A DNA stretch of 64,000 bases, from assembly GCA_037576195.1 (NCBI GenBank), contig CM075102.1, positions 6,138,001 through 6,202,000 of the forward strand, written 5' to 3'. The notes under the pieces are model-generated. The model saw nothing but the letters and a program-made list of their open reading frames with translations. It searched no databases and was not told the origin of the DNA. Below are positions 17,887-52,975 of this stretch, one piece after another (position 1 is the first letter of the stretch; the number at the start of each line of letters is the position of its first letter). The DNA comes from Phytoseiulus persimilis (Eukaryota > Arthropoda > Arachnida > Mesostigmata > Phytoseiidae). The translations under genes and the position numbers were made by a program.

Positions 17887-18099
17887 ACGATCACAGTCCC
17901 GAAGCAAGGCTGATGGGCGCATTCTTTTGGGAGGGAGAGAGAGCGCGCCAGCTATGAATTCCGACGGTTCTGTAGTACAGACCGGCCAGGCACCTTCGGG
18001 GCAGGCAGAGTACTTCGGCTAAGCGCCTACGGGCCCGGCGAAGTACTTTCGACACGCACTGTCCACGGTGAGCGCCTTCTGAGCTCCTATAGTGCTGAG
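17887..18099. other. Spacer between long-TIR array and MULE-1
   Basis: GC-rich; contains near-repeats of GAGTACTTCGGC / GAAGTACTTTCG. The MULE-1 reading frame may extend back into this stretch, but no recognisable domain was seen. Confidence 0.3.
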
Positions 18100-19215: not shown

Positions 19216-22130
19216 TCTGCAGTTTTCCATGAATTTCTAGGTCTCGCAGGTCTCATATCCAGATTAGCGTTCGATGTTTTTGTTTTTCAGAGTTCATGGG
19301 CTGGGTAGCATATTTTATCGATTGTGGGTCCCTTCTACAGACTCGCAGCCAATTTCTTCGTTAACCAGGGTCCAGAGGTTGTGGAGAATCATTTACCATT
19401 CGCGGGTCCCTCTTACAGACAGGCGGCCAATTTTTGAATTTCAGAGTTCACGGGTTGGAGCATGCTTTATCGCTCGCGGGTTCCTCTTACAGACCAGCGG
19501 GGAATGTTTGCTGCGGGAAATCTATACATCATCCAAAAATGAAATCATCGAACTATGGAAGGTGCACTCTACAGACTCGAATCCAATGTTTTCCTCCACG
19601 GTCCGTATGTTCCGCCGGGGTCCACTACTCTGCATTTCCTGATTCTATGTCTTCAACTGTCTTTATCTTTACTCTAATTCTCTATCAAGTCAAAATGCAA
19701 CACTCAAGAGGAAAGCTCCACGAGAAACTCATTTCGAGCAATGATGAAGAAGATGTTCTTACACCTAGCTGAGCCATCTCAGCGGTAGGGTGCAGCCATC
19801 TGTCCTGAGCAGAGAAATTCGAGGCGCTCTGGAGCTGCTTCCTTTTCCGTATGATCTGAAATCCGAACTGAGCATGGAGAAAGAAAGCTTCTGCCTTGAA
19901 GAAAGCAGGAAATAGGGAGATCACTCTCTACCTGCAGTTTCCGTCAAGCATGTCGCTCCCACAATCTCGAAGTCCGAGTACGAATGTTTCTCTTCCTATT
20001 CTATTCAGGATAGACCGAACTCGATGAAAATTGTTGGACTTCGCCAATTTTCGAAGTACAAATGCTGTTCCCAGCGTTCCGTTCACAACACGGTCGACTC
20101 CGGCGTCCAACAAGTGAGGACAATCTCCAAGGAACGATCCAGGTCTTCGAGTTGTCTTGGCGCTCGCTGACGGAATGTTCACGTTCGAAAGGACTCCTGT
20201 ACTCTTCACTCCAGATATTCCATGAATCCCATTCGACAAAAAGTCCGCGTGGGCCAGACTCAGAGTCCAGGCTGAGAGTCCAGCGGCGAGCGGCCGGTTC
20301 TCATTGAGGGGAGCTTGGTTGTATTCCTCGCCTACAAGGATGAGGCAGCTCTCGGCGCGCGTTTCTCCCGACGTCACGGCTTTCACACTCGAATGCAACC
20401 GAGATGCAGCAAATTCGCAGGCGGGTCGAATCGAGTGTCTGAAACGGGGCCCAAACTTCCAAGTTTCTCAGTATTCCGTCGGATTCGGGTCTCCAAGGGA
20501 TTTAGCGGTGTAGAAAGTCTCCGAAACATGGGACGGATGCATCCAATGTCCATTTGTGGCCCACGGATGAATTTCGTCCTCGTCACTTGACTTCCGGTAT
20601 GAACATCATGGCGACACTCGGCGAATGAGTGGGTGTCTCACAACCCTCCGAAATTCGGATTCAGCGCGCTCAGTTTCCGTCCGCAGGAATGCATTCATCA
20701 GCTGATCGCCGGGACTGTGATACGGACCGGGTGTAGGCCAAGTGATCGTATTCTGATCGTGTTTTGGTTGTTTCCAACTCACGGATTCGAGAGAGAGGCG
20801 GTGCCGGGGCAGCGCGCGGTTTTTCGAAACGAAGGGAGCAGGTAGTACATATTATCGCCCTCGAGCGGTATGTTTGCGAGATATCACAGGATGATAGCGC
20901 GATATGAATCGGGCCGTGGACCGACAGTCTGGTTGAAAATCGGAGACTGGAAGAATAGACTGTGACGAACAGTTCACAACTTCCAGGTACACACTGGAGC
21001 GAGGCCTAGCTCCCTGAGAGAGCGAAGAGCCATGCGCTTGCTCCCAACAGGAGATGGGAATCGGGCGACGAGGGGTGGAGGTCCATATCGGAAAGGTGAC
21101 TCATGGACGTCCGGCGGTCAGCGACAGTTTCCGCGTTCCCTCACAAGTACGGGGCTCCAAGAGGGAACTGGACTTTTGAGGAGAGGATACCAATGAGAAG
21201 CAAAACGTTCCCATCACATATCGACTCTGTCTGATGATATCTCGCGAGTGTCCAAAGTCTGCGTCGACAAACTATTCTGACTCCAAGTGAGGCTCACCCG
21301 AGTGACGTGTCAGCTAAAACGGGCGAGGATCACATGGGATTGACAGCAGTTTTCGCTCTCGTAGATACACTCGACGGACACCTGGATATTAGATTCGGGA
21401 GTCATGTGCGGGAAACCTTCCTTCCCGTTGCGCTCGACGCCTTAACGCTCCTTGTCTACCCTCCGTTGTCCGTTCCTCCTCAGATGCATATTCTCGATGA
21501 TGGTCGATTGGATAGCAGTGAAGGAAACAGGGTGCACGAGTCAGGTTCAGGTAGCTTCTTCATGTAGCTACATGTAGCTTAGCTTCAAGCGCTCCATCCG
21601 ATGCGTGACTGCAGTATAACGAGTGTATGGATCGAGAAACTGATGATCGGGGTCTCCGGACGCATTTGAGCTGGTGATCGTTCGTCATTTCCAACGACCT
21701 CTTATGAGTATTCGACGCCACAGCGGGAATAAATGCTTCCATTCCGCGACTCCGGTATGAGGTTTAGAAAATTCCCTCGCTCCTCTTCCGTTCCTCCCGG
21801 AAATGCGAACGAACCGCGACCCCTGCCGGGACCGAGCCTGAGGCCGTGCGTTATCGCAGAGCGCTGTCAAAGGCAGGATCGAGGCTCCTTGGTGGCATGT
21901 CTATATCCCATTGGATCGCAACATCGGCTGTACCTGGAGCCTTCGCTGAGGTTTGCATCTCAATCCGTTTTTGTGAGCACAAGGAAGTCAATCACTCGGC
22001 TTTGTTCCGATTCGCTCAGATGCGCGCTCAAAACTTGCTCGAAGCTCCGCCCCCTTACATCCTTCCCCTCGAATACGTCTGGAAGGCGCCATCTTGAATA
22101 CGATCACTTGGCTGCCCTCCATACGGACCC
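19216..22130. other. 2.9 kb without recognisable genes
   Basis: No convincing coding motif on either strand. A 156-codon minus-strand open frame at 19928-20398 uses a TTG start and has no motif, so I do not call it. Diverged repeats occupy 19288-19620 (separate entry). Short palindromic CTACATGTAGCT sequence occurs near 21566-21578. The right edge abuts the truncated LTR of element M. Confidence 0.4.
19288..19620 (+). repeat. Diverged tandem repeats with a TACAGAC core
   Basis: Four degenerate copies, spaced 88, 64 and 82 bp by their ACAGAC cores at 19337, 19425, 19489 and 19571. Each core follows a pyrimidine-rich TCTTAC-like tract and, in three copies, a GGGTYCCTCT-like stretch. Spacing is irregular, so this is an old, decayed array or a chance expansion. 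Confidence 0.5.
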
Positions 22131-22234
22131 CGGCAGAGGCGCGAAGCACACACAAGTGGTGCGGCCTAACTCCACGCGACGGGCCTCTACCACCAATCTA
22201 GCGTTCTCCGTCGCATGCAGTTTAAGCTCCGTAA
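22131..22234 (+). repeat. Element M 5' LTR, left part (truncated)
   Basis: Matches the end of the M 3' LTR (about 39155-39250) through GGCAGAGGCGCGAAGCACAC and TTTAAGCTCC, with a 7-bp indel and a few substitutions. It ends at GTAA (22231-22234), the left copy of the Gypsy-B target duplication. The rest of this LTR (GTAATA, 34858-34863) lies on the far side of Gypsy-B. The outer, left part of the LTR is missing. Confidence 0.75.
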
Positions 22235-22452
22235 TGTCATCTACTGGGACTCCGACGGATACTCTCTGAGACAGACTGTACCGATGAACAACGCGACTTC
22301 CCGGGCTCTCACTCGTTTATTCCACTCACGATATGCACTCCACGTGCTCGCCGTTAAGTACCCGTTTCTCTTCTCTACCTTATCCAGATACGCTCCTCTT
22401 CCAGCGCGTGTCTGGCTTCTTCTCCCTCCAATCAACTCTCTTGCCCCTGACA
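22235..22452 (-). repeat. Gypsy-B 3' LTR
   Basis: 218 bp with TGTCA...TGACA termini, identical to 34640-34857 except one A/G difference. Because the termini are perfect inverted repeats the LTR looks correct in either direction; orientation is fixed by the internal genes. Confidence 0.92.
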
Positions 22453-22731
22453 CTCGGTCACAGCTACCGGTGAATGTCCTCATCACACCCTAAGTATTTC
22501 AAACATACAAAAATCGTGAACCTATTCGGGTGAAATCAAACAACATTTCTCCAGATAACATCGCGACCCTACAGTCCATGTTTCTATAGCTTAAGTACGC
22601 TCAAATGATCTATTGTATGCCTATCTCGGCCACGCTCTAGATGGATGTCCTCATCGATCCCGATACCGTTTCCTCACGATGAACTCAACATTTGCAACCG
22701 ACCAATTCCGTTCTCTTGTCTTTCATTCAAA

Positions 22732-25683
22732 TTATTTCGGATACCTCCCTCTGAAGTGAGCCTGCCTTGATGGCCGTCGCCGATCCTGTTGAACTAATTC
22801 TTTCCCGGTTAGAGGAGTTGGCTCTGTTCGCCTAAACGTTGGCCCCACCGCCTGTTGCTTTCCTCCAGCTAACTTCGTATATTCCTCCGCTGGTGATTCC
22901 GCTTCTAGTTCAGTCTCGTCCCCGTGCATCGTTTCTTCCTCCTCAATGATAATCGCAGCATTCAAGTCCACCTGCTCCGAGGTCTCTTCCCCTGCCGACT
23001 CTTCCTTCTCCAGTTTACACTCCTCGAGTAGAACCGACAACTCTTCCACGTCTCTCGTTGTTACATGATTTTCTTCTTGTTCTTCCTTTTCGTCTTCTGC
23101 AACGGATGGTTTTTCTCGGCCTGTCTCTGGAAACTCTGAATCATTCTCAGTTAATGGGACTATATCGATATCTTCGGATCCGAATACTCTATACCACCGA
23201 ATTTGGGAACAGTGAGCCGTGCATTGGTAACTCCTACCCGGCCCCAACTGTGTCAGTCTATAGGTGTCTCTCGGCATCACTTCGGTTATCACCAGAGGCC
23301 CTCTATACTTAGGTTGGAGCTTTGTGGGTTTCCCTGTGTGAACTGGGAGTCTCGAAACCACCACTACATCCCCCAACGAGTATCGAACTGCGTGAGCCTG
23401 ACGCTTCCTCTCGTAATACATGGAGTATTCTGCCTGTTTCTTGAGAATTTGACTCCGAATCTGTTGCTGAACTTCATCCGACGGTGTCCAGACTTCCTCT
23501 TGTTCATTTTCCACCACTTGAGCGAACCCGTCAAGTCTTGGCATGTACCCATGAAGTATCTTGAACGGCGACGTCCCGGTTGTTCTCGATGGTGCCCGGT
23601 TAATCATCATTTGGACTGTTGCGACTTTTGATGCCCAATCTGACTTGTCTGGTTTCTCGCTGATTGTGCGCAATAATCTTGTGACTTCCTTCACCATCCT
23701 CTCCGCCTGTCCATTCGAGTTTGGCCTTTGTGTCGAAATCAATATTTGACGCACCGAGTGTTTCTTCAAGATTTCCCGGAATTTTTCCGACGTAAACGCA
23801 GTCCCACGGTCAGACACCACCCGGTCCGGATTCCCATACTGCATGAACACCTTCTTTAGGAACTTGATGACTGCCGCGGCGTTTGTGGTCCTTGTTGCCT
23901 CTAACACCACAAATTTGGATAAGCCATCCACCAATACAATCACATGTTGGAATCCATTCGATTTCGGGTACGGCCCCACAAAATCAAGGAACAATTTCTG
24001 GAAAGGGCGTCTCTCAGGACCTATCGCTTGACATAGCCCTTGCTTCTTGCCCGAATCACCCTTGTTGTACAAGCACTCGAGGCAAAGTTTCAAATGCTGC
24101 TTGATGTACTCCCTCATCCTCGGGAACCAGTAAGACTGTCTGAGTATTTCCAGCGTTTTGTCTCTTCCGTAATGGCCTGCTTTATCATGTGCCATCACCG
24201 CCATGTACTTTCTCAAGTGCCTTGGAACGACAAACAATAGCTTCTTATCGGCCGATTTGTACAGGATGCCTTGCTTCAGTTGGAACCCTTCGATAATACT
24301 CCTTTCCTTGAGAGTTCGTTCCGACTTCAGCCTCTCCAATATTCTAATTCGTTCCCTGATCTCCGGGTCAACTGCCTGAATCATGTAGACCTCGTCGTGA
24401 TTGAACGTCCAGTTTTGCTCAGTCATCAATTTTAGTACTTTCGCTTCCATCGGCTTCAAATCTGTAGGATATTCTTCCTCTTCGACATCTTGTGCTTCAT
24501 CAAACGGCATTCGACTCAATGAATCCACATGTTCCATTGCGGTTCCTGCTCTGTGTTCCACCTTAAAGTCGAATTCTGCGATCCTGTTGAGCCATCTCGC
24601 TAATTGTGGTGTTCCATTCAAGGACTTCAACGACGCCACCGCCTTACAATCCGAAACGACCGTGAAATGAATTCCGTGCAGATAATGTCTCAATCGCTCC
24701 ATGCTCCAAATCACTGCCAATTGTTCAAGCTTAGTCGAGTGGTAATTTTTTTCTGTATCCGAAAGTTTCCTGCTAACCGCGTAGACCATGTGAAATCTGC
24801 CATCTTCCTTCTGGAGAAGAATCGCCCCTAACCCTACACCACTGGCATCTGTATGCAGTTGAGTTTCTCTCTTTGGGTCAAAACGCTTCAGAATGGGCTC
24901 CTCAACTAAGGCTTTTCTCAGCGCACTGAACGCTCGTTCACAACTGTCGCTCCACACAAACTCAGCGTTCTTCTTCAGCAAAGCAGTGAGAGGTTCTGAA
25001 ATAGTCGCATAACCGCGGATGAATCTTCGAAAGAAACTGGTCAATCCCAGGAATCTCCGAACCTCGTGTAGATTCCTCGGTTTCGGGAATTCGTGTACTG
25101 CCATTGATTTCTTGCTTCCCGGTTGAATTCCATGTCTAGACACTTTGAATCCGAGGAACTCCACCTTTTCCATGGAAAACCGGCATTTGCTCAGTTTGAT
25201 TGTAAGGCCTGCCTTCCTTAGTGCTTCCAATATGCTCTCGATCAGGGCTAGATGCTCTTGGTGTCCGTTTGACGCTACAATCAAATCATCTAAAAAAGGA
25301 TGGACCCGATTGTTTCCCACCTTTGCTCTCACTTTCATCATTAACTCCTGAAAGCAGCTAGGAGCGCCTGAGAGTCCCATCATCATCACGGTGGGTTCGT
25401 AGTGTCCTTCAGGTGTTACGAAAGCCGCTTTTTCCGCTGCCGACTTCGCCATTGGAATTTGGAAATACCCAAACGCCAGATCGAAGGTCGAAAAGAATCT
25501 TTTCTCTCCTGTTTCGTCCAGGATATCGTCTACGAGGGGTAACGGGTAATTTTCCTTGATCGTTTGCGCATTGAGTTTCCTAAAGTCAATAACCATTCTC
25601 CAGGAATTGTCCGGCTTGCGCACCAACATAACGGGCGAAGCATACGCTGAGTGCGACTCTTTGATCATGTCGGCCTCCTTCAT
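22732..25683 (-). pseudogene. Gypsy-B pol: RT, RNase H, integrase
   Basis: Open for 983 codons. RT motifs: ASPVMLVRKPDNSWRMVIDF, FSTFDLAFGYFQIPM, HPFLDDLIVAS (catalytic DD). RNase H: QLHTDASGVGLGAILLQ. Integrase: an H-H-C-C finger region (HDKAGHYGRDKT ... CLECLYNK), LFLDFVGPYPKS (first Asp), VVSDRGTAFTS (second Asp) and NSNGQAERMVKE (Glu). The C-terminus has YRGPLVITEVMPRDTYRL, CTAHCSQIRWYR, and a long acidic tail (EEEYPTDL-like and EEKEEQEEN-like stretches). No chromodomain seen. Intact in this frame, but separated from gag/protease by an upstream in-frame TAA near 25684. Confidence 0.92.
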
Positions 25684-27048
25684 CTGTTACAGAATCTCTC
25701 TCAATGATTCTCTCTCCACCGCTGACATCCGGAATGGTTTACACCGCACAGGACTACTACCTGGAACCTCTTTTATAACGAACTCCGTCCAATCCGTTCT
25801 TCCTATTTCCTTCATCGATTTGGCGATGACGCTGCGATTCTTGTTAAGCAATTCCAACAATGCCCGCGTATACTTCCTTGGAACTTTCTCATTCACGTGA
25901 AGGTCCTCCATTTTGATTTCCTCCACTTCCGTCGTCTCAACTGCGTTGACTTGCGCTCTCGGGTACTGAACATTGAAATAGTCACTCTCCTCTTCCATAC
26001 GCCGACCCCTCGCTATCACCGTTCCTTTTTTTACAAGGAGATCTTTCTCTCCGAAATTTGTCACGGGCAATACGCAACCCTCTTCTGTAACTTCCAACAG
26101 TGTTTCGAATTCAGACGCGTCCTTGACACAGAGCAGTCCATCCTTCTGGTCCGAGACCTGAGTTCTAACGAAATCGACCGCTCTTGCTTTCAGTCTCACC
26201 GCCTCTGGCACTGAGAGTTTCACCGTATTGTTTTGCAATCGGGCCAATGTAGTCATCACTCGAGGATCTTCCTCATCCAGGACAGCTTGCGTGATTTTCT
26301 CGAAGTTCTCCTTCTCCAACAGCCAGGTGTTTCCACTGCATGTCATGGAAACAATCCCTCCATTGAGTACCGGTTTCCCGATCAGAATCTCGTCTTGTTT
26401 CCACATTTCGGATGGGACCACCGTCAGTGCGACGTTTTCCAGCATCATTCCGTCGATTTCCAATACGACGACCGCTTCCCCCAAGGGCTTGCATCCTGCA
26501 CCCGTATATCCCGCAACGAACCCCAACTGAGTCTGCCCCACGAAGATTGAGCCGCCTCGCCGCGTCCTCCGAAATGAGATTTGTGTCTGCTCCACTGTCG
26601 ATTTGTGCCTTCCATGGTTGCTGATTCACTCGAATTCCCATTAATTCCGACTCGAAAACGGGCTGGTTCCCCACCGCGTTGCCTGCAGTGCCCTGGCTGT
26701 TGATTTGTCTAACGTTTGTACAGTATCTGCTTATGTGTCCTTGCTCCCCGCATCGAAAGCAACCATCATTTCTTCTAGTGCTCGGCGCTTCGCCCGGCAT
26801 CACCGCCCGATTGTCTGCTTGGTCCGTTCGTCTAGCTGTATGACTCATTTGCCTGACCGGTTGCTCGGTTTCTCGTCGTCCGGGCGCCGCGGTCTCTGTC
26901 AGTGGGTGATGTATGTTCGGTCTGTCAGAAGTCCTCGTCTCTGCTGCCGCACTTGCCGCTGTTGAATCTTCGGCCCTTCGTCTGGAAAATCTCATCGTTC
27001 CTTGACTTCTGAAGCGATAATCTTCTCTCGTTTGTGGGCTGGGACACG
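25684..27048 (-). pseudogene. Gypsy-B gag 3' part and protease
   Basis: Two overlapping minus-strand frames. Upstream, a second knuckle CFRCGEQGHISRYC (about 26730-26770) and the protease motif IDSGADTNLIS (about 26585-26615). Near 26550 the frame shifts, and the protease continues as FVAGYTGAGCKPLGEAVVVL down to the RT N-terminus at 25687 (SPVRCKPFRMS), ending in TAA. At the right end is the second half of the first CCHC knuckle, split by the Gypsy-A insertion at 27049-27052. Protease would process the Gag-Pol polyprotein. Confidence 0.85.
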
Positions 27049-27052
27049 CATA
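27049..27052. repeat. Target-site duplication CATA of Gypsy-A (left)
   Basis: CATA precedes the 5' LTR and recurs directly after the 3' LTR at 33814-33817. 4-bp duplications are typical of Ty3/Gypsy integrases. Confidence 0.85.
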
Positions 27053-27302
27053 TGTCAGAGACGGAATTGGATATGTGGGAGCGGGATCAGCTATGGTGAA
27101 CGCAAGTGGATGGAAACGAAAGGGAAGGAGAAATGAGAGTGAACGTCGAGGGTAGAGAGGGAGAGAGTAGGTGTGAGAGAGAGAGAGAATGAGGCGAAGC
27201 GCCGAGTGTGACTGGACAGAATAGTTGAGTGCAGAATAAATACGGTGGAGGTGAAAAGAGAATGTGTGCGTACTAGCTACTACCGGCCCTTGCACGCTCA
27301 CA
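27053..27302 (+). repeat. Gypsy-A 5' LTR
   Basis: 250 bp, TGTCAGAG...GCTCACA. Contains GA-rich repeats near 27160-27190 and an AATAAA signal at 27235-27240. Confidence 0.93.
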
Positions 27303-27392
27303 TTAGCAGCGGTGGTGAAAAAGAACAACGGTGTCAAAAGTACAGAGAGAAAGAAAAAGAGAAGACCAAGGAACTTGAAGCACGGAAACGAG

Positions 27393-30300
27393 ATGGAAAA
27401 GGAGACAGCAGAAACACTGAGGATGGTCATGGAGGGGATGAAGATGCTGAATCAACAAATGGTCGAGCAACAAAGAAAGAGGGAGGAAGGAACAGACGAT
27501 ACGGAGAAAGTCGAGAGGATAGAGCGTCTCGTTGACACCTCTACATCGTTGCGAGCATTCTCAGGTGGGACCGTAGCGGTGGCAGAGGAGTGGTTACAGG
27601 ATGTGATTCAGGCCAAAAAGACGGGTAGATGGAGTGAGGAATATACGAAAAGTTTGCTGCAAGTGAAGTTGGTTGGACCGGCGAAGTGGTGGTATAGGGA
27701 CTATTGCGGGGAGGTAGGAACTTTAGATGAATGGCAGAAACTATTCGAGGAGACCTATACGCCAAGACAGAAACGGAGGGAATTGATGAATGAATTTTTG
27801 AAAGGAATACAGAGAAGGGGAGAAGGTTTAGAGATGTACATCAGGAGGACGGAGCATGCGGCGAGAAAGTTAGGGCTCGAAAATGAGGAGATAAAGGAAC
27901 AGATTATAGAGGGACTACTACCGGAATACGAGTTCCTGCAACACTTAATGATGGGGAGAAGTCATAAGAACATGACGGAGTTGTATAAGGATATTCAAGA
28001 AACAATGGAAAAAGAAAGGTTACGGAAAAGCAGACCGGGTGCATCGGGATTTAGAGGGGAGAGTCGAACAGAGTTACGAATGACGTGCTACATCTGCAAT
28101 AGGGAGGGGCATAAGCAAGCATGGTGCCCAGAAAGGACTAGGATCGGACACGGACGAGGAAGTCCGGACCGGCGTGAAATTGGAGGATACGGGAACTCAT
28201 GGCAAGGAGAGGCAGGAAGAGGTAGGGCTCAGGGATACGCGCCAGGGGATCAACTTCGAGGGAGTCCAATGAGGGAAGGACCAGGGTACCAAGGAGGAAC
28301 CTGGGGACGGGCAGAGCCAACTAGAGGACCACAGTCAGGACTAAGAACACCAACAAGGGAGATTACATGGAGGGAAACAACGAGCGGATCACGCGGAGGA
28401 CCACCAGCAAGGGGAGGAGCGACAACGTCGGGTACATCGCCAGGTGTGACGTGCTTCAGATGCCAGGGAGTGGGACACACGGTGAGGGAATGTCGAAACA
28501 TTAGGCACGTAGAAGAAGATTGGAGATTCGAAGAAATCAAACCGGTGGCGTCAAGTCGAGAACGGGGGTTGAAAAAGGTTATGGTAAACGGCAAGGAATG
28601 GACAGCGAGGGTAGACACAGAAGCGGAGATAAGCTTCATTTCAGAAAAATCAGCGGAGGAATTGAACTTGAAACTGACCCCGAGCGCGGTAAAAGCGATA
28701 CGTAGCATCGGAGGAGGTTCTTGCAAACCGGTAGGACAAGCACAGGTACGACTGGAAGCGGACGGACTAGAGATAGAAAATGTGACGTTGACAGCGCTGC
28801 CAGAGGGAGCAATGGAAGAGAGGGAAATATTCCTGGGGAAGGATCTCATTGATAAAGAAATGGTGATAGTCTATCGCGGGGGAAAATCATGGATACTGAG
28901 GGACGAAACTTTTGAAGAAATCACGAAGATGTTGCCGAAGGAAGAAGAGCGAGTCAGTTTGCAGACGAAAGAAGAAGTGACGCTGGGACCGCGAACAGTA
29001 GCAATGGTACGAGTGATACCACAGGAGAAGACAGAGGGGATCATAATGATAGAGGACCAACAAGACTGGGGAGCAATTTGTCAGTTACAGGAAGAATTAG
29101 TGATACCGGTAGCGAATTTGGGGAGACAAGAAGTTACCTTAGGTGAAGGAACGATTGTGGCACGAGGGAAAAGGATAGAAGAAGGCGAACTTTTCAGACT
29201 CAAACGGACGGGAGCGAGTATAAACCGCGTGGCGGTAGAGGAGAACACGGCCGAGAGGAATATTGGGGAAGAAGACGTTCACGTAGACCCGGGTACACCG
29301 GAAGAATACAGAGCCGAACTCGTGAGGATCTTGAATACACATCGGGAAGTAATAGCCACATCAATGAGGGAATTAGGACGAACGACACTGACTGATTTCG
29401 ACATTGAAGAAATTAAGGACAGCCGGCCAGTGAGGTGCAAACCGTTTCGATTATCCGTGGTAGAAAACCAAGCACTGAGGGACATAGTCCAACAATTAGC
29501 CGATGCAGGCATGATTGAACGCTCGAGCTCCGAATACGCAAGCCCGGTGATGTTGGTGAAGAAAGCCGATGGTGGATGGAGAATGGTCATAGATTATAGA
29601 AAACTGAATGCGCAGACCGTCAAATTGAACTATCCGTTACCACTGATTGACGAGATTCTGGATGGCGTCGGAGGGAAAAACATATACTCAACGTTCGATC
29701 TAGCTTGGGGGTACTTCCAAATACCTATGACAAAGAGGGCGGCGGAAAAGGCGGCATTTGTCACGAGCGAAGGACATTACGAACCGAGGGTTTTAATGAT
29801 GGGACTATGTAACGCACCCGCAAAATTCCAAGAACTAATGGTACGAGTGAAGGAGATGGTAGGCAAACAACAGGCATTTCCGTTCCTCGACGATTTAATA
29901 ACAGCATCGGACCGATTCGACGAACATCTACAGCAGATTGAGAAAATTCTAGAAGCATTGAGGGCCGCTGGACTTACTATACGACTTGACAAATGCAAAT
30001 TTTTCATGGAGACGGTAGAATTTTTGGGATTCAAGATATCGAAAGAAGGGGTCCGACCGGGAACAAGGAAGCTGGCAGCAGTGTCGGAGTTCGCAATACC
30101 GAAAGACGTGCATGAGGTTAGAAGATTTCTGGGATTAACATCATTCTTCAGACGATTCGTCAGGAATTACGCGACAATATCGAATCCTCTAACGGAGCTG
30201 CTGAGGAAAGGGGCAGAATTCAAGTGGACTGAGAAGTGTAAGGAAGCGTTCGAAAGATTGAAACAAGAGTTACTAAGAGACGCGGTGCTGGAGCGATATG

Positions 30301-32419
30301 AACCCGGGAGGAGGACAGAATTACATACGGACGCAAGCTGCGTAGGACTGGGGGCGATACTGATGCAAGAAGTAGAAGGAAAGATGAAAATGGTCTATGC
30401 GATCAGTCGGAAACTTTCGGAGACAGAGAAGAATTATCACTCAACAAAATTGGAGCAGCTAGCCGTAGTATGGAGTATGGAACGGTTGAGGCATTATTTG
30501 TACGGGCAAGAGTTCACAGTAGTTTCGGATTGTAGTGCGGTAGCAGCACTGAAAAAAGAGGGAGGCTCAACACAGATGAGTCGGTGGCTCGATAGGATCG
30601 CGGAGTTCAACTTTTCGGTGAGACATAGAGCGGGAACAGCGATGGGGCACGTTGACGCGCTGAGCAGAGAACCACTCGAAGACGGGAGAGACTTAGAGGA
30701 GAGGGAATCACCGGCAGAAACCGAGGCGAAAACGATATTCACAGCATTGGCGACTTACGACGAGTTTCAAATGATCCAGGCAGCCGATCAAGACATCAAA
30801 GAGAGACTGGAAGCGTTCAAGAAAACCAAAGAGGAAAGAACAAAGAGGGAAAATAATATCACGCAGGGGTTTTGCGTAAGACATGGAATACTTTACAAGG
30901 AACTTGAGGGGAAACGATTGTTCGTTGTACCGAAGGCCATGAGGAAATACATATTGGTGGTGGCGCACGACAAAGGGGGACATTTCGGAATCGACAAAAC
31001 TTTGGAAATTATGAAGGCAACATATTGGTTCCCAAACATGAGGGAATATACAAAGTGGCATCTGAAGGCGTGCCCAGAGTGCATATTCAGTAAGGATCTT
31101 TCGGGGAAGAAAGAGGGATTGTGTCATGCGATACGTCCGGTGCATCGACCCTTTGGGAAATGTTTCATAGATCACTTGGGACCGTCGCCGAAATCCCATG
31201 GTAAACAACACATCATAGTATTGGTGGATGGGCTAACGAAATTCGTGTATTGGAAGCGGTGCAGACAACCTCGGCCGCGGGCGTTATAAAATTCCTGGAA
31301 AGCGTGTTCATGAGATATGGTAGAATTGATCAATTAGTGTCAGACAGGGGGACCGCGTATACTCATAAGGATACAGAGGCGTTTCTAAAGAGGGAGCAGT
31401 GCAAGCACACGTTAATATCCCCGCAAAAACCGAGCTCTAACGGGCAGGTAGAGCGTCTGGATAAAGAGGTAGCCAGGCTACTGAGGGCATTGTGTCAAAC
31501 AGCGGATCATAGGGATTGGGTCAAGTACTTACCAATGGTACAAATGATGCTGAACAGGGTGGTCTCAAGAAGCACGGGGAAGTCGCCATTAGAGGTTCTA
31601 CATGGGTTCCTACCTAGGATCAATAATCATGCGCAGTTAGTCGAGCAGGAGCAGGATCAGGATAAGGTGTGGAGACCCGCGGCGGAAATTCAAGCAGAAG
31701 TGAGGGAACAGTTGGTACACAGTCAAAATAGGTATGCATATTACTATGATGCCAAGCGGAGGCCGCATTACATCCGGTATTCAACGGGGGATGGAGTCGT
31801 AGTGAAGCGGTTGCCGGTACACACGGGCCAACCAACCAAACTGCAGCCTAAGTTTAGGGGACCGATGGTTATTTCGGAAATACTGCCTAACGATACGTAC
31901 CGTCTTGTTCAAATCGGCCGAAAGAATTACACATGTACAGCTCACTGTTCACAAATCAAATGGTACCGACTGCATGATGAGAATGAGGAAGAAATTGAAC
32001 CCTATGAAGGAGATTCAATGGAGCCAGGGACAAGTCAGGAAGGAAAGCCCGAGATGCAACGAACGCAAGGAAACTCAGCGTCAAGGAGGGCGGCAGTGGA
32101 AGAAATCATCGAGGAAATAGAAAGACAAGAAGATGTTATCGAATCAACGAGGGTTAAGGAGGACGACCATGGGGAACAGCCGATTGAAAGGGACCAAGCG
32201 GGAACGGAAGACGACCCCATAGAAGTGGATTCATCAGCGTCGTCGGAAGATATAGTGATAACGATTGACCCAAGAAAGCATAGGCTGTTAAGCGATAGAC
32301 CGACTAGGGACTTGAATACGGCACGATTAGAGAATCCAGGTAGAGTAGGGGAGTATCAGAGCACAAGTAGGGTACAACCAAGTAGAAGATCTAGGTATCA
32401 AGGGAGGTATTCCAGATAG
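27393..32419 (+). pseudogene. Gypsy-A gag-pol with one integrase frameshift
   Basis: The open frame runs through the LTR edge, but the first good ATG is 27393. Gag: helical region with AEEWLQDVIQAKKTGRW, then two knuckles, CYICNREGHKQAWC (near 28087) and CFRCQGVGHTVREC (near 28450). Protease: VDTEAEISFIS near 28612; the Gly of the usual D-S/T-G-A is Glu, expected to cripple it. RT: ASPVMLVKKADGGWRMVIDY, FSTFDLAWGYFQIPM-like block, FPFLDDLITAS. RNase H: ELHTDASCVGLGAIL. Integrase finger: HDKGGHFGIDKT and CPECIFSKD. Near 31250 a one-base frameshift moves the frame; the core resumes with QLVSDRGTAYT and SNGQVERLDKE and ends at TAG 32417-32419 after CTAHCSQIKWYR and an acidic tail. Confidence 0.93.
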
Positions 32420-32550
32420 AAGTTGGGGACAACTTCGGTGGTAGCGTGGACGAGAACGGAACAAGGTGGAATGTAAACAACAAAGAATGAGAATCGAGGC
32501 GAGAGGAGCGTTGAGAGCGGAGAAAGCGAGGCGAGGGAAGTGCAGAGGAA

Positions 32551-33381
32551 ATGCGAGGAAACGCAGAAGAGATTCTTTTCGCTCGAGCCTCTGGAACGTG
32601 CGCACAACGACGACTAACGAACCTCGTGAATCACCAAGGAGGGATGGACTGCCAGGAACAACCCAACCAAGGAGGCAATGAGGGACTCGGAGACGTAGAA
32701 AGATTCAGCCGATTCAAGAAGGAGACGGAGGGACGGGTGAGCCCGGATTTCATACAGTTTCAAAAGGAGGGAGAGGCAACGGCGGATGCCGACGTCGTAC
32801 AAAGGAAGACGTTAGAGAGGGACATCGAGAGAGCGGTCGCATTTGAGGTCGGCGTATTTAGACAGCTCAGTTTGGAAGAAGCCCATCAGGAGCAGAAGCC
32901 GCTGAGGCAAGCCTGCGGGCGCTGCGATGACAACACCCACGACGATGATAGTCCGAGATGCAAGGCCCGTTGGGTGGAGTGCCGCTTGTGTAAACAGGTG
33001 GGACACTACAGCAGGAGCACGTTGTGCCCGCGAAACCAAGAGAGAGTCTGCTACAACTGCAACTCGAAGGGACACAAGGCGCGTGATTGTCGAGAGCGCA
33101 CATTCGTGAGGGATAATGAGGGCGTGTGTACGGTGGAGCGAAGAGGCGCCCCGGTAGCCACGTACACGAAGCAGTTCGGGTTTGACCCGGAGACCTACGG
33201 CTACATTGTGGGAAAACGGTTGCAACGTCGAGATCAGCGGAAGGAGGGACCCGTCGTCACGCAGCGAACACCAGCCAAGCAGAATGTTCCGGACTCGGTC
33301 GCCGCGACAGTTGTTGCTGCTCAAGGAGGGGCCACCGCGACGAAGACGTACCACGCGGTCCCGCCGCCAGCGAAATACTGA
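32551..33381 (+). CDS. Gypsy-A third ORF: triple zinc-knuckle protein
   Basis: ATG 32551 to TGA 33381, 276 residues, intact, between pol and the 3' LTR in the position where some Gypsy elements carry env. It shows no signal peptide or membrane segment, so it does not look like an envelope. Residues 75-115 are charged and helical. A cysteine-rich core follows: C122/C125/H130/C137 and C144/C147/H152/C159, both C-x2-C-x4-H-x6-C, then a canonical C-x2-C-x4-H-x4-C, CYNCNSKGHKARDC (167-180). The tail is basic and Ala/Pro-rich. Likely nucleic-acid binding. It starts 131 bp after the pol stop, so expression would need splicing or reinitiation. It may be a captured or duplicated gag-like or host gene; the origin is unknown. 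Confidence 0.75.
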   Translation: MRGNAEEILFARASGTCAQRRLTNLVNHQGGMDCQEQPNQGGNEGLGDVERFSRFKKETEGRVSPDFIQFQKEGEATADADVVQRKTLERDIERAVAFEVGVFRQLSLEEAHQEQKPLRQACGRCDDNTHDDDSPRCKARWVECRLCKQVGHYSRSTLCPRNQERVCYNCNSKGHKARDCRERTFVRDNEGVCTVERRGAPVATYTKQFGFDPETYGYIVGKRLQRRDQRKEGPVVTQRTPAKQNVPDSVAATVVAAQGGATATKTYHAVPPPAKY

Positions 33382-33555
33382 GGGAAGTTCCACGTAAGAT
33401 GCCATAGAGGAAGTTCTCGCGAATAAATGATGGTAGCGGAAGGATTACTGAGGGATACGAGGTGGTGTGCTCTATTTAACAACGTGCCGTAGTATAGCTA
33501 GAATTAGGTGAGCAGAGGCGATGTCAGGAGACATCGTAGACGTAGCGTGGTCGAA

Positions 33556-33813
33556 TGTCAGAGACGGAATTGGATATGTGGGAGCGGGATCAGCTATGGT
33601 GAACGCAAGTGGATGGGAACGAAAGGGAAGGAGAAATGAGAGTGAACGTCGAGGGTAGAGAGGGAGAGAGTAGGTGTGAGAGACAGAGAGAGAGAGAGAA
33701 TGAGGCGAAGCGCCGAGTGTGACTGGACAGAATAGTTGAGTGCAGAATAAATACGGTGGAGGTGAAAAGAGAGTGTGTGCGTACTAGATACTACCGGCCC
33801 TTGCACGCTCACA
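33556..33813 (+). repeat. Gypsy-A 3' LTR
   Basis: 258 bp, same termini as the 5' LTR; longer by 8 bp in the GA tract. Followed by CATA target duplication (33814-33817). Confidence 0.93.
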
Positions 33814-33817
33814 CATA

Positions 33818-34567
33818 TTACTTATGTCCCTCCTCACCACAGTCGTAACAGCTCACAACTGTCCGATCTCCATATCTTCTCGCGATCGAAGAATTCGAAA
33901 TTCGTGGTCGCATACCACCGTCCAAATCGAAGCTGTCTTCTAGATCTCTAACAAGCTCGTTCAACTTTCCATGAACTTGTGCATTGAGGAACGGAGCGAA
34001 TTTTTTGTACTCAGGCGACAAGCCTCTAAGGATTTGCCTTTTGAGATCTGTGAAGCCCATATCCACTTGGAAAGCCAATCGCTCAGCTCTGCGCGCAAAT
34101 GTTCCAATTGTTTCCCCGCGCTTCTGATAGCATTTCAAAAATGCCTGCATCAGATCGAGTTTCGTCTCTGGAGTCAAATACGAAGACTTGAATTCCTCTT
34201 TTCATTCCTGGAAGGTCTCCAGCTCGAACGCATTCGATTCATGCCAGTCCAAGGCCTCTCCGGTCAATTTACGAAGTATCATCCCCATGGTGTATGGGTC
34301 TGACCAGTTCCCTATTTGCTTCGCATTTTCTAACTGACGGAGCCATCGTTCCGCCTGCATCACTGTTCCCCCGGCAAATATAGGTACCGTCACCGAAGTA
34401 TCTGCATAACGTCCCACCAACCTGGCTCCGTTTCCCGACTCGCTGGTCGACTGGGTGATAGTCGCGAGGTTCTCCGACAACTGCTTGCACAAAGCCAATA
34501 CGGATTCCACCAGCTCAACCTGCGGCTTGTCCGCAGTTGATCCTGTTCTTTCCTTCTGATCTTGCAT
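33818..34567 (-). pseudogene. Gypsy-B gag, N-terminal part
   Basis: ATG at 34567. One frame with a TGA at 34199-34201 (a Trp position by comparison with FQE-x-KEEF spacing in related gags). Contains IFAGGTVMQAERWLRQLENA, LTGEALDWHESNAFE and a RAERLAFQVDMGF helix, then CYDCGEEGHK, the first half of a CCHC knuckle, at 33818-33860. The missing half lies on the other side of Gypsy-A at about 27030-27048. A stop codon lies two codons from the integration point in the pre-insertion sequence, so Gypsy-B gag was probably already broken, or the stop arose later. Confidence 0.85.
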
Positions 34568-34621
34568 GGAGTTCCACGTGTTGGGTCTCGCAAAGTTCTC
34601 GCTCTCCGTCTAATTCCCAGA

Positions 34622-34639
34622 GTATCCCACCGCTGCAAA
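34622..34639 (-). promoter_or_regulatory. Gypsy-B primer-binding site
   Basis: Directly inside the 5' LTR, minus strand reads TTTGCAGCGGTGGGATAC. Gypsy-A has TTAGCAGCGGTGG at the same place (27303-27315). Conservation at this position in two diverged elements marks it as the tRNA primer site; which tRNA was not established. Confidence 0.65.
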
Positions 34640-34857
34640 TGTCATCTACTGGGACTCCGACGGATACTCTCTGAGACAGGCTGTACCGATGAACAACGCG
34701 ACTTCCCGGGCTCTCACTCGTTTATTCCACTCACGATATGCACTCCACGTGCTCGCCGTTAAGTACCCGTTTCTCTTCTCTACCTTATCCAGATACGCTC
34801 CTCTTCCAGCGCGTGTCTGGCTTCTTCTCCCTCCAATCAACTCTCTTGCCCCTGACA
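34640..34857 (-). repeat. Gypsy-B 5' LTR
   Basis: 218 bp, one substitution from the 3' LTR. Followed by GTAA (34858-34861), the second copy of its target duplication. Confidence 0.92.
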
Positions 34858-34893
34858 GTAATATGGTGTCAGAAGTGGGGTCCAGGTCGTAAA

Positions 34894-37230
34894 ATGTCAA
34901 ATCCAGGTCAATCAGTGTCCAGCCCTTCGGTGACATCGTCGGCAACGATCCAGCTTCCCGCGCCGCCCAGGTTTGTGATCGGCGGCTCCGTGTGCCTCTT
35001 CTCGGCATGGAAACGCTGGTCTGCGGGTTTTCGCCGCTTCGCAAGAGCTGCCGGGATTGCGGGCCGCGATCAAGCCGAACAGATCAGCCATGTGTTGGTT
35101 CACGCGGGCGACGAGCTCACGGAGATCTACGAGGCACATGTCGAAGCCAGCATGGGCCCTACAAATGGATTCGAGCAGGTGCTCACAGCCATTGAAAAGC
35201 ACTTCCAGGCCCAGCTCAACACCTCTCAGGCGAGATTCGAATTCCTCAACGCCAAGCAGGAAGACCGCGATCTTGATCGACTCATGAAATATCTCAAAGA
35301 CAAGGTCACGGAGTGCGAATTCTGCGAGTCATGCTCCAAGTCCCTGACCGCCACCGCATTCATCAACGGAGTATGCGATAGGGAACTCCGAAAGCATCTC
35401 ATAGAGCGAAACAGACTCCTAGGCCCCGACGAGATGATCCTCAAGTCCAAAGCTTTCGCGGCCACTCGGAAGATCGAGGTTCAGATCCCAGGGGGAAAGC
35501 CACAGCAGGCAGCGGCGGACATCGACGAGCCGGCAAAGGTGGATCAGCTGGCGAGTCGCCGATTGCCACACCGCGAGCAACGCCAGCAATACGGAGCTCA
35601 GCCACAGAGCTCCCGAAGACCCCCGATCTGCAAGGACGGATGTTTCTCTCATCCCAACGGGAAGTGTCGCGCCCCAAACACCAAATGTCACAAGTGCCGG
35701 CGGAGGGGTCATTTCGCCAACGTGTGCAAGTCCGTCAACTCGATGGAAGAAGACAACTCCGAAACGGAGACCCTCGACAACCTAGCCCTGGACGCAGTTC
35801 GCATTCAGAGTCTCCGGGGCATAAACATCGGAAGAGATCCTCCGGGAGCGTGGTGGGCAGAGCTGTCAGTCGGCGAGCCGCCACGAGCAATCGAATTCAA
35901 GCTAGACAGCGGAGCCGAGTGCTCGGTCCTCCCGACCAACGTCTTCAAGCTGCTCCCAGGGCGACCGGCGCTCCAAGTAACCTCCAAGCGGGTTGTATCA
36001 TACTCCAATCATTCACTGCAGATCGACGGTGTCTGTCACCTTTCAGTGATGGCACCCGGCGCCGCGGCAGCACACCGCGTGAAGTTCTACGTCATTAGAA
36101 CTTCGGCTCCGCCGATTCTTGGGCTCCCGGCATGCGAGTCCCTCAAGCTCATCAAACGCTGCCACGTTGACTCGATGCATCTCCCGCCCCCAGCGGACGG
36201 CGCCCTGCCCTCACGTCTGATTGCCGAGTTCGCTGATGTCTTCGACTCGGCGGGGCTCGGGCTCCTCGATGCGACTCAGACAATCGAAATTCCGAATCCC
36301 CCGCCGCCGCGAAAATTCCCTTCCAGAAGAATACCGATGAGATTCAAAGAGCAGGTCAAACAACAACTGGCAAGAATGGTAGCATCCGGCGTCCTTGAAA
36401 GAAGCTACAAGGCCACAAGATATGCATTACCAATGGTCACCGTCAGGAAGGCTGACGGATCGATTCGAGTCTGCATAGACCCTAGATTGCTGAATCCACA
36501 CATCCAGCGCATGAAGTTCCCGCTACCCAAAGCGGAGCAACTCTTCGCAAACCTCGGTGGAGCAAAGTGCTTCACAGTGGTTGACGCCGCGTCGGCATTT
36601 TATCAACTCCCACTTGACGAGGCATCGAGTGATCTTTGCACAATATCAACACAGTTCGGGAATTTCCGCTTCAAGCGCCTCCCATTCGGAATAGCGGACG
36701 CCTCAGAGCGATTCAGTGAGGTAATTCACCGTTTTTTCGCAGACCTCGACGGTGTCATCAACTGCGTAGACGACTTCCTCGTGTACGGCCGAAGTCAGGC
36801 TGAACACGACGGGAACCTCCGAAAATTCCTCCTCCGGTGCCGCAAGGTCGGTCTCAAGCTAAAACCGGAGAAACTCCAGCTATCAAAGCCAGCAGTCCGG
36901 TTTCTCGGACACAACATCAGCAAGGAAGGAGTCCGCATCCTGGAGGAGCGCGTCGCTGCCATCAAGCAAATCAAACCCCCCCCCACGACGCCAAAGGCCG
37001 TAAGGCAATTCCTGGGAATTATCAACTATGTGCACAAATACATCCCGAACGCAGCGTCTCGCACTGCTCCTCTGCGACTCCTCACTCAGACCGACTCAAG
37101 CGAGTTTATCTGGGGAGACCCGCAACAAACCGCATTCGAGGATCTCAAAAAAGCCATATCCGAGGCCCCGGTGCTGCAACACATCGACCCCGCCAAGCAA
37201 CTCACAATCTCCACGGATGCAAGCTCGTGA
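34894..37230 (+). pseudogene. Element M gag, protease, reverse transcriptase
   Basis: ATG 34894, open for 778 codons to TGA 37228-37230. Gag: LFSAWKRWSAGFRRFARAAG, typical of mag/K02A2.6-like elements. Paired Cys fingers: CKDGCFSHPNGKC and the canonical CHKCRRRGHFANVC near 35685. Protease: FKLDSGAECSVLP near 35905. RT: MVTVRKADGSIRVCIDPRLL, TVVDAASAFYQLPL, and NCVDDFLVYG near 36760 (VDD box). The frame stops at TISTDASS, the start of RNase H, where the following 40 bp look rearranged. Transcribed with integrase sequence downstream in other frames. Confidence 0.88.
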
Positions 37231-38992
37231 ATTTCCTCGCTCGCGGGAATGAATTCCAGAGATGACGGAAGCGCTCGCTCCATGTTCGACCGAAACTCTG
37301 CACCAGCGTCGGCGTTCTGCTTCAGGAGGGGAGGCCAATTGCCCATACCTCAGCAAGCCTTACCCAGACGCAGCAGCGGTACGCCCAACTAGAAAAAGAA
37401 CTCTTTGCAATTGTCTTCGCTTGCGAACAATTCCGTTTCTACATCTTGGGGTCCCATATCAATATAGAATCAGACCATCGTCCTCTCGTGAGCATAGTCA
37501 AAAAAGACATATCGCTACTCAGCCCCAGGGTCCAAAAGATGATGCTCCGACTGCTGCGATACTCCTTTTCCCTTTAGTACGTCCCGGGAAGGCTCATGCA
37601 TATCGCCGACAGCCTCTCCCGCTCGCCAGCCGAAAGGTACTTCGAAACACCCGAGATGGAAAGCAAGGGTGAGAAGGTACTGTCATCGCTCGTGGTATCC
37701 GATCAACGGCAGCAGCGCCTGGTTCGAGAGACAGCCGAGGACCCGGGAACGGCAGCGGCAATGAGGCTCACCCGACAAGGCTGGCCTTCGCTCAAACGCA
37801 AGATCCCACTCCCGCGAGACCCTACTGGCAGTACAGAGGTGAGCTACACATCATTGACGGGCTTCTCTACAGGGGGCACAGACTGGTGTTGCCGGCAGTC
37901 CAAATTCCCTCGGTGCTCTCTAGTCTCCACGCCGCTCATCAGGGGGAGGAGCGCATGCTCCGACTGGCCCGTGCAACTGTGTTCTGGCCCGGCATCACGG
38001 CGGCGGTCAAGCGGACAGCCGAAAACTGCGACCAATGCCAGACTCGCCTTCGAGCGAATCCCAGAGAACCGCCACGGCCCAGCCCTCCTGCGCCACACCC
38101 ATGGCACTCGGTCGCTGCGGACTCCATGCATCTCAGGCAGGGCACGTTCTTGGTCATTGTCGACTACTTTAGTAAGGACGTGTTTGTCAGACCCATGCGG
38201 TCCACAACGGCTGACGCCGTGGCGGCGAGGGTTGAGGAGCTGATTGTCCAGCACGGGGCCCCGGCTCGTTTCGTCAGCGACAACGGTCCCCCTTTCAACA
38301 GCAAGGAATTTCGCGAGTTCTGTCGGCGCTGGTCAATCGAACTCAGCCCCGTGTCCCCGGGACACTCGTCGGCAAACGGGCAAGTCGAGCGAACGATCCA
38401 AACTCTAAAGGCGACCTTGCGGACCACCCCCGGTGCGGATGGCATTTCTCCCGCGCAGCTGTCCAACAGTAGGGTTCTCAGAACCAAACTCCCGATTTCG
38501 TCCAGTCAGCTGTCGACAGAGCCCGAACCCGTGTGGAATGTTCGAAAACAAACTCTCGAGAAAGTGGCGGAACTGGCCAGGCATTATCATGACCGCGGCA
38601 CGAAAGAGTTGCCGTCTCTCGAATGCAACCAGAGAGTCCTGGTGCGAAAATCCTGTCGACAGTGGGAAAGCGGCACCATTGTGAAGCTATTGAGCAACCC
38701 AAGAGCAAACATCATCCGTCTTCAATCCGGGATCGAGTTGAGAAGGAACAGAAGAGACATCCGGCCTGACAGAAGGGAAAGCAGCCGAAATCAATCCGCC
38801 AACGAGCAAGCGCCCACCCCCGAAATTCGCCCGACTATTTCGTTCTCGACACCTCTGAGCACCCCGGGAATATCCCCTCAACCCGCAACAACGTGCAAAC
38901 GTTCAGCACCGTCGGCTCTCATCCGGAGACGAACGAGTAGGGTCCCCGTTCCGAGCTCTCGAATCTACAACCCCAACTACATCACCAAGTAG
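37231..38992 (+). pseudogene. Element M RNase H and integrase, frameshifted
   Basis: RNase H continues in another frame at about 37310-37590 (VGVLLQEGRPIAHTS, YAQLEKELFAIVFACEQFR, a TAG, then VPGRLMHIADSLSRSP near 37590). Integrase occupies 37886-38992: finger region HAAHQGEERMLRLA ... CDQCQTRLR, VIVDYFSKDVFVRPM, RFVSDNGPPFNSKEF and SANGQVERTIQTLK, then a basic Pro-rich tail. Several frameshifts and stops separate the parts, more than in Gypsy-A or B, in line with M being the oldest layer. Confidence 0.85.
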
Positions 38993-39027
38993 CCAGAAGA
39001 AGCCCAACGATTGTGTGAAAAGAATGA

Positions 39028-39254
39028 TGTTACGTTCTTGTCGTTGTGGCGACATAAGACAATAATCTAAATAACTTGTGTATCCAAACAGTGCCGTTCA
39101 ATAAAGCGCGCCGTCGGAGTCGCGGTGCATGCCAGCCAACAAGTCTGGCATCTACCGGCAGAGGCGCGAAGCACACACAAGTGGTGCGGCCTAACTCCAC
39201 GCCTCTACCACCAATCTAGCGTTTTCCGTCGCATGCAGTTTAAGCTCCGTAATA
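39028..39254 (+). repeat. Element M 3' LTR (left boundary inferred)
   Basis: The right half matches 22131-22234. The left boundary is placed at TGTTACG because TG starts LTRs and it follows the pol stop closely; it cannot be checked against the 5' LTR, which is truncated there. AATAAA occurs at about 39101. Confidence 0.55.
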
Positions 39255-52171: not shown

Positions 52172-52639
52172 CCGCCCGGCCTACCGGTGGACGTCGCGGA
52201 TAGCTCAATGCCAGAGAGACTGCGTCAAGGCTAGGAGAGCATTCCTTAGATCTAGGACGATCAGCGCAAGAAACCCTCAGAGTATGGAAACATGCCTGAG
52301 GAACAGACCTGGGCAGATTCGAATGAAAATGGTTCGATAACTTTGATTCGAATCAAAGTCCCCGACTCCCCGACTATCTCAGAAAACGGAAACATCCGAA
52401 CCCAATCCAGGAAACACTGAAGCACACAGTTTGTTCGGTCGCTCAATAGTCACTCCTCGCTCCAAAGTTCGAACTGACAACTTACTCACGTTCCGGCACG
52501 TATCGGGAGCTACAACATGTAGAGCGGGGCCGACTGGAGCCGGCCGCGCTAGGCGCGGTCGGACTACGGTCCCTTGCATCGAGACACTTTTCTCTGAAAC
52601 TATCTTCTCATTCGGTTGATTGCTACATGCTGTTATGGT
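52172..52639. other. Spacer, no recognisable gene
   Basis: No motif. A GC-rich patch with GCCGACTGGAGCCGGCCGCGC near 52530-52550 is a short imperfect palindrome. Confidence 0.35.
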
Positions 52640-52975
52640 CAGATGGACTCCGGAATTACCTCCTCAGATTCCAAATAGTATTGTCAGGTCGATCCTAGAC
52701 TCACCCCTTCAGACTCCGAAGATTATGCTCAGATTTGTCCCGGAATCACTCCACCAGACTCGGCAAAATCTCGTCAGATTGGTCCCGGAATCGCTCCACC
52801 AGACTCGGCAAAATTTTGTCGGATTGGTCCCGGAATCACCCCTCCAGACTCGGAAGAATATTGTCGGATTGGTTCCGGAATTACCCCTCCAGACTCAGAA
52901 AAGTACGCTCAGCTTAGCGCTGGAATCACCTCCATGTATTTGAGGAGGAATGCCGACAAAATGACAGACGAAGCC
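52640..52975 (+). repeat. 45-bp repeat, second locus, diverged block with element end
   Basis: Seven degenerate units of the same 45-bp family as 563-3003, opposite orientation (for example CAGACTCGGCAAAAT units about 45 bp apart from 52680 to 52930). The block ends in GACAAAATGACAGACGAAGC then CGATCATAAGTAGT, matching in order the outer edge of the first-locus element (CTGTCAGTTTG and AATCGGCTTAG on the other strand). So the terminal sequence is conserved between loci. Confidence 0.7.

What the first reader, a model, noticed from the sequence alone, without database searches (positions are those of the whole stretch)
22131..39254. Three-level nest of Gypsy elements with both inner target duplications preserved
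Sequence shows Gypsy-A (27053-33813, CATA duplication) inside the gag zinc knuckle of Gypsy-B (22235-34857, GTAA duplication), itself inside the last bases of the 5' LTR of element M (22131-22234 plus 34858-39254). Each inner element alternates strand. The order of insertion M, B, A is fixed by the nesting and agrees with M having the most lesions.
Basis: seen in the sequence. Interest (0 to 1): 0.75.

Follow-up and report, generated by a model that had tools for sequence, protein, structure and literature searches.

The report
Three retrotransposons nested inside each other

Summary
The nest is real. Element A (27053-33813, +, CATA duplicated) lies inside the first gag zinc knuckle of element B (22235-34857, -, GTAA duplicated). 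B lies two bases before the end of the 5' LTR of element M (22131-22234 plus 34858-39254, +). Nothing was excised: each flank was mapped separately onto uninterrupted copies elsewhere in the same 181-Mb genome, and in both cases the flanks meet with a 4-base overlap. The order M, B, A follows from nesting. The lesion argument is weak: LTR mismatches (A 3/250, B 1/218, M 1/97) do not resolve the order, and all three are broken. More interesting: A has an extra sense gene after integrase (32515-33381) with zinc knuckles and signs of purifying selection. Between A and copy A2 it is only 66.6% identical, beside 98.2% identical gag-pol, so it looks exchanged as a module. Two protein-database searches found no relative.

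The parts
22131..22234 (+). Remnant of the 5' LTR of M (last part only; resumes as GTAATA at 34858-34863)
   Evidence: Matches of 83-99% to the six other M-family loci tested (L002, L003, L005, L006, L007, L012); first ~128 bases not found in the window
22231..22234 (.). GTAA, left target-site duplication of B
   Evidence: empty site in M2
22235..34857 (-). Element B (Ty3/Gypsy), interrupted by A; LTRs 22235-22452 and 34640-34857
   Evidence: LTRs differ at 1 of 218; RT, RNase H, INT domains
22732..25686 (-). B pol: RT, RNase H, integrase
   Evidence: Pfam
26273..27052 (-). B gag end: second zinc knuckle and first part of protease (36 of 90 profile positions); the rest appears by eye in 25687-26625 in another frame, without a Pfam hit
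   Evidence: Pfam; translation
27049..27052 (.). CATA, left target-site duplication of A
27053..33813 (+). Element A (Ty3/Gypsy), with both LTRs, 27053-27302 and 33556-33813
   Evidence: copies A2 (L057) and A3 (L058)
27255..31289 (+). A gag-pol frame: gag, knuckle, protease, RT, RNase H, start of integrase
   Evidence: Pfam
31205..32419 (+). A integrase remainder in another frame (A2 has the core in one frame)
32515..33381 (+). A third gene (ORF3): 288 aa between stops, three CCHC clusters (two hit by Pfam zf-CCHC; the first, of unusual spacing, by eye), no strongly hydrophobic segment
   Evidence: 52 matches in the genome, its own included
33814..33817 (.). CATA, right target-site duplication of A
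33814..34639 (-). B leader and gag up to the first knuckle; in-frame stops, one of them in the knuckle just before A
   Evidence: knuckle and gag domains in B2
34858..34861 (.). GTAA, right target-site duplication of B
34864..34879 (+). M primer-binding site, complementary to the 3' end of tRNA-Leu(CAG) with CCA
34858..39254 (+). Rest of M: PBS, gag-pol (RT, interrupted RNase H, integrase), 3' LTR 39028-39254
   Evidence: copy M2 (L060)
37225..37315 (+). ~91-base stretch in M's RNase H, 99% like C1:10165167-10165257, apparently an insert
   Evidence: M-like copy at C2:18512966-18513105 has 14 other bases there
20729..22120 (.). 1392-base repeat with terminal inverted repeats abutting M; 9-base duplication ATACGGACC at 20720-20728 and 22121-22129

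Best explanation
Three successive integrase-mediated insertions of Ty3/Gypsy retrotransposons, each with few listed copies, in an animal genome, probably an arthropod. M inserted first; the start of its 5' LTR was lost at some time. B inserted in antisense two bases before the end of M's 5' LTR. A then inserted, again antisense to its host element, in B's first gag zinc knuckle. Both inner insertions were staggered cuts that duplicated 4 bases. Shown: boundaries, duplications, empty sites in natural copies, domain content, and that all three are now broken. Inferred: host group, and that the assembly join is correct. A also belongs to a subfamily with a third gene (zinc-knuckle ORF3) that I infer is an RNA-binding accessory protein, exchanged between lineages by template switching.
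For: LTR pairs and 4-base duplications. Empty sites in B2 and M2 with a 4-base flank overlap. Other copies have their own duplications: A2 GGTC, A3 TATG, B2 AATC, M2 ATGCC. Domain order protease-RT-RNase H-integrase in A, best match among solved structures Ty3 Gag-Pol. The places listed for M's LTR (9), B's LTR (6), B's gag end (2) and A's LTR (11) coincide only in the window; those lists are lower bounds.
Against: No reads, so the assembly join is untested. M's 5' flank and its own target duplication are gone, so M's insertion is inferred from its copies. LTR divergence does not confirm the order. The empty sites are copies elsewhere, not the same locus in another individual; M2 differs from the window at one of the four target bases.
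Confidence: 0.96

Rival explanations
1. The nest is an assembly join of separate copies.
For: No reads were available; the elements are repeats with copies 94.6-98.0% alike outside ORF3.
Against: Few close copies of each family are listed, and an assembler would not create exact 4-base duplications at both inner elements matching empty sites in other copies.
Confidence: 0.02
2. The outer-inner pair moved as one unit (B with A already inside, or M with B inside), so it was copied rather than built in place.
For: Compound elements have been sought in plants: PMC6911290 (section 7 read) found 26 similar nested pairs, but concluded they were probably not mobilised together, leaving an alternative open.
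Against: The only other place listed for B's gag end (B2) and the only other close place listed for M's leader (M2) are uninterrupted at these sites, and each inner element has its own intact duplication.
Confidence: 0.02
3. For ORF3: the divergence between A and A2 is not module exchange but gene conversion that homogenised gag-pol, or faster evolution of ORF3.
For: Gene conversion between dispersed copies would also leave gag-pol alike; the event itself is not seen. Informative sites in the integrase region (9) group the copies as ORF3 does, so the two regions do not conflict in branching, only in depth.
Against: Faster protein evolution does not fit: in the ORF3 block pS is 0.77 and pN 0.14, beside 98.2% identical gag-pol. 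The step is sharp near 32503-32526. Conversion over 5 kb stopping at the gene edge would itself be recombination.
Confidence: 0.25

Closest known systems
Nested LTR retrotransposons of plants (PMC6911290: abstract and section 7 read)
   Same: Elements inside pre-existing elements; higher nesting frequency reported more often for Ty3/gypsy than Ty1/copia families
   Different: Animal genome; in that survey nesting was rarest in LTRs and integrase, whereas B sits in an LTR (one case, no statistics)
Ty3/Gypsy (Metaviridae), best solved match Ty3 Gag-Pol 7q5b
   Same: gag, protease, RT, RNase H, integrase order; paired LTRs; 4-5 base duplication
   Different: A has an extra zinc-knuckle gene after integrase
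Errantiviruses / insect endogenous retroviruses (PMC12992720: passages read)
   Different: Their third gene is an envelope; A's has zinc knuckles and no strongly hydrophobic segment. That paper argues against envelope exchange between lineages
MDG1-group accessory sORF1/sORF2 of Drosophila (PMC11952523, preprint: passages read)
   Same: Accessory genes of envelope-less Gypsy elements, in some Lepidoptera downstream of pol
   Different: Short helix-turn-helix or transmembrane proteins; no zinc knuckles in the passages seen
Cer1 CERV protein of C. elegans (PMC10309623: passages read)
   Same: Extra protein of a Gypsy-like element, needed for export of genomic RNA, with a possible C4 zinc finger
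   Different: 517 aa, from a spliced mRNA; no sequence link to ORF3 was tested here
Retand elements of plants (PMC11963269: abstract read)
   Same: Additional genes between pol and 3' LTR, suggested to be regulatory
   Different: Those are antisense and many carry a TRP28 domain; ORF3 is sense and carries CCHC knuckles

Membership tests
Ty3/Gypsy LTR retrotransposon | Paired LTRs with TG...CA-like ends | tested here: met
   A and B TGT...ACA; M TGTTAC...GTAATA, ending TA
Ty3/Gypsy LTR retrotransposon | Integrase after RNase H | tested here: met
   A: protease 441-530, RT 768-928, RNase H 991-1118, integrase zinc domain 1225-1280; B and M2 also RT, RNase H, integrase
Ty3/Gypsy LTR retrotransposon | 4-6 base target duplication (range recalled) | tested here: met
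   A CATA, B GTAA; A2, A3, B2 4 bases, M2 5 bases; window M not testable at its 5' end
Ty3/Gypsy LTR retrotransposon | tRNA primer-binding site just inside the 5' LTR | tested here: inconclusive
   M: 16 bases to tRNA-Leu(CAG) including TGG. B 13 and A 10 bases to tRNA-Leu(AAG), but starting five bases in from the mature tRNA end and without TGG
Errantivirus | Envelope gene after pol | tested here: not met
   A's third gene: only zinc-knuckle Pfam hits at E <= 1, highest 19-residue hydropathy 0.81; B has 279 bases between pol frame and LTR
Chromovirus | Chromodomain at the integrase end | tested here: not met
   No chromodomain hit in the A, B, M, A2 and M2 pieces scanned
Nested insertion | Uninterrupted copy with flanks abutting at the duplication | tested here: met
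   B2 and M2

The most novel reading that the evidence does not exclude
A clade of arthropod Ty3/Gypsy elements carries a conserved third gene, a triple-zinc-knuckle RNA-binding accessory protein after integrase, that is swapped between element lineages as a cassette, independently of gag-pol and of the LTRs. It might act as a second nucleocapsid or as a Rev-like RNA exporter.
Probability: 0.45. Interest if true: 0.55.

Novelty: new member of a known kind. Interest (0 to 1): 0.3.

Why it matters
The nest is a clean record of three insertions in a fixed order and a good test case for nested-element annotation, but it teaches nothing new in kind. The by-product matters more. If the third gene is a real, exchangeable accessory protein, it would add to the list of non-envelope genes carried by Gypsy elements. 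It would also give a system in which module exchange can be measured, because gag-pol is nearly identical while the third gene differs.

Tried and rejected
ARAGORN found no tRNA gene in the window. Protein searches with ORF3 alone and with an alignment of eight ORF3 sequences found nothing at E <= 0.001 among 1724 and 6243 candidates. LTR dating was tried and rejected as uninformative; the A3 LTR figure there (33 of 242) rests on approximate boundaries in a copy whose 3' LTR has a deletion, and I do not use it. I first read M's 37172-37382 as an insert because M2 lacks it; the M-like copy at C2:18512966-18513105 and M2's shortened RNase H showed that M2 has a deletion and that only the middle ~91 bases look foreign. 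I considered that the left neighbour (20729-22120) truncated M; its intact 9-base duplication, with non-M sequence on its far side, argues that the truncation is separate. Structure prediction of ORF3 was not run: relatives from the whole-genome search are not on that tool's allowed list, and I expected a poor model from one sequence. The species was not identified; 'arthropod, perhaps a mite' is inference from BEL/Pao-type gag, nearest named protein hits in a pseudoscorpion and a spider, and genome size.

Full report
The window is G000:C2:6138001-6202000 of a 181-Mb assembly in 127 contigs. It is an animal genome by inference: a gag with DUF1759, which I recall as typical of BEL/Pao elements, lies at 4434-6239, and the nearest named relatives of A's polymerase are in a pseudoscorpion and a spider (best 120 of 655 hits listed).

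Boundaries. A's LTRs are 27053-27302 and 33556-33813, with CATA on both sides. B's LTRs are 22235-22452 and 34640-34857, with GTAA on both sides. M's 3' LTR is 39028-39254, and its 5' LTR survives only as 22131-22234 plus GTAATA at 34858-34863.

Empty sites without excision. I mapped each flank separately. In B2 (C4:1923534-1929384) window 27052 falls on L010:1501 and window 33814 on L010:1504. The right flank aligns over 1044 bases without a gap; the left over 1555 columns with 4 gap columns, the nearest at 26655, about 400 bases from the site. In M2 (C4:23294483-23299071) window 22234 falls on L012:1903 and window 34859 on 1905, so the shared stretch is again four bases, with one mismatch in it, and neither flank has a gap. 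In B2's uninterrupted gag the first knuckle CYNCDEEGHKSYAC lies at L059:1242-1283 and the A target at 1275-1278. The other copies carry their own target duplications: A2 GGTC, A3 TATG, B2 AATC (4 bases) and M2 ATGCC (5 bases).

State of the elements. A: gag-pol is open from 27255 to 31289, and the integrase core then continues in another frame (31205-32419). A2 has the integrase in one frame but a stop between gag and the rest. B: read from the leader towards A, the gag frame has a stop in the leader, one in gag and one in the first knuckle just before A; only the first 36 of 90 protease positions match in one frame, the rest appearing by eye in another; a stop lies just before the RT domain. 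M: RT matches over its full profile, RNase H only over positions 1-39, integrase follows in a later frame. M's 3' LTR lacks 7 bases that its 5' remnant has; alignments of the 3' LTR to L002, L003, L006 and L012 also show 7 gap columns, and L005 8. So all three are broken; I made no full lesion count. LTR mismatches are A 3 of 250, B 1 of 218, M 1 of 97 and cannot order the events. B2's LTRs differ at 10 of 218 and A2's at 4 of 252.

Surroundings. Left of M lies a 1392-base element (20729-22120) with terminal inverted repeats and a perfect 9-base duplication, ATACGGACC. The genome search listed 16 matches, the window's own included, four other places being 98-99% identical over 391-532 bases. 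A 9-base duplication suggests a Mutator-like element (recalled, not tested). Because its far flank is not M sequence, the truncation of M's LTR looks like a separate event.

Primer sites. M has a 16-base site for tRNA-Leu(CAG) starting with TGG. B (13 bases) and A (10 bases) match tRNA-Leu(AAG) from five bases inside the mature end, without TGG. The patterns hit 11 and 9 places in the genome; of 8 loci held I scanned 7, and 5 gave a tRNA-Leu at the pattern while L066 and L069 did not. How A and B prime is therefore open.

The third gene. Between integrase and 3' LTR, A has a sense frame of 288 residues (32515-33381) with three CCHC clusters; Pfam hits two, and the first, of unusual spacing, is by eye. 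PDB similarity is weak (HIV-1 nucleocapsid, best E 0.002, above the usual cut). It matches 52 places in the genome, its own included, some of them with stops or fragmentary. Of the 20 loci held for these, 17 have integrase similarity upstream on the same strand (weak in L036) and 3 do not (L044, L045, L050); L032 and L035 are one element. In an alignment of eight sequences chosen for long open frames, 10 of 12 knuckle Cys/His are invariant; the two exceptions are both in L043. Selection: of 15 pairs among five loci and A, 10 gave dN/dS 0.13-0.35 (three of these with dS near saturation, and several repeated because L038 and L040 are identical and L037 nearly so), 2 gave 0.30 from two changes each, 2 were saturated and 1 had no change. 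In the 132-codon A-A2 block pS is 0.77 and pN 0.14 in the right frame, and pN exceeds pS in the other two frames.

Module exchange. A and A2 are 98.2% identical over gag-pol, 66.6% over ORF3, and 95.7% in the 3' LTR. A and A3 are 97.1%, 96.5% and 91.9%; A2 and A3 96.8%, 66.8% and 92.4%. A fourth copy (L034) shares A2's ORF3 at 98.3% and the integrase region of the other three at 96.5-98.3%, but its 3' LTR region is only 65-68% like theirs; its LTR ends were not determined. In four-copy site counts ORF3 gives 221 sites for A+A3 against A2+L034, with 0 and 1 for the alternatives. The integrase region gives 9, 0 and 0 for the same grouping, the stretch after ORF3 also 9, 0 and 0, and the 3' LTR has no clear signal (1 for that grouping, 2 and 2 for the others). 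So branching does not conflict in the integrase region; what differs is the depth of divergence. Two deeply different ORF3 types, and in L034 probably a different LTR, sit on nearly the same polymerase. Template switching between co-packaged RNAs is the likeliest route; gene conversion is possible. PMC12992720 (passages) reports such switching among rover variants in flies, including exchange of internal sequences, but argues against envelope exchange between lineages.

Literature. Ten searches of the open library ran (one search failed). Five aimed at third genes, zinc knuckles or recombination; no title or abstract start listed there describes a zinc-knuckle third gene in Gypsy elements. That is a statement about those listings only. 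I saw passages of PMC10309623, PMC12992720, PMC11952523 and PMC6902594, the abstract of PMC11963269, and the abstract and section 7 of PMC6911290.

Verdict. The nest is real, well resolved and ordinary. The accessory gene is the part worth following.

Noticed in passing
32515-33381: Third sense gene of element A with zinc knuckles, with signs of purifying selection and apparently exchanged between element lineages.
   Followed up: yes
20729-22120: 1392-base element with terminal inverted repeats and a perfect 9-base target duplication, four other places at 98-99%; abuts the truncated M LTR.
   Followed up: partly
37225-37315: ~91-base stretch in M's RNase H, 99% identical to C1:10165167-10165257, with 2-4 bases of overlap at its edges: looks like captured filler DNA.
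   Followed up: partly
639-2989 and 52632-53940: Long array of 45/90-base repeats with an open frame of 820 aa on the minus strand, and a related inverted copy 50 kb away with a weak DUF4116 hit.
   Followed up: no
61501-64000: Tandem repeat with a period of about 762 bases, about 97-99% identical, running to the window's end.
   Followed up: no
14163-17888: About 1.2-kb units in direct and inverted order, 95-99% identical.
   Followed up: no
27303-27315 and 34624-34639: Primer-binding sites of A and B match tRNA-Leu(AAG) only from five bases inside the mature 3' end.
   Followed up: partly
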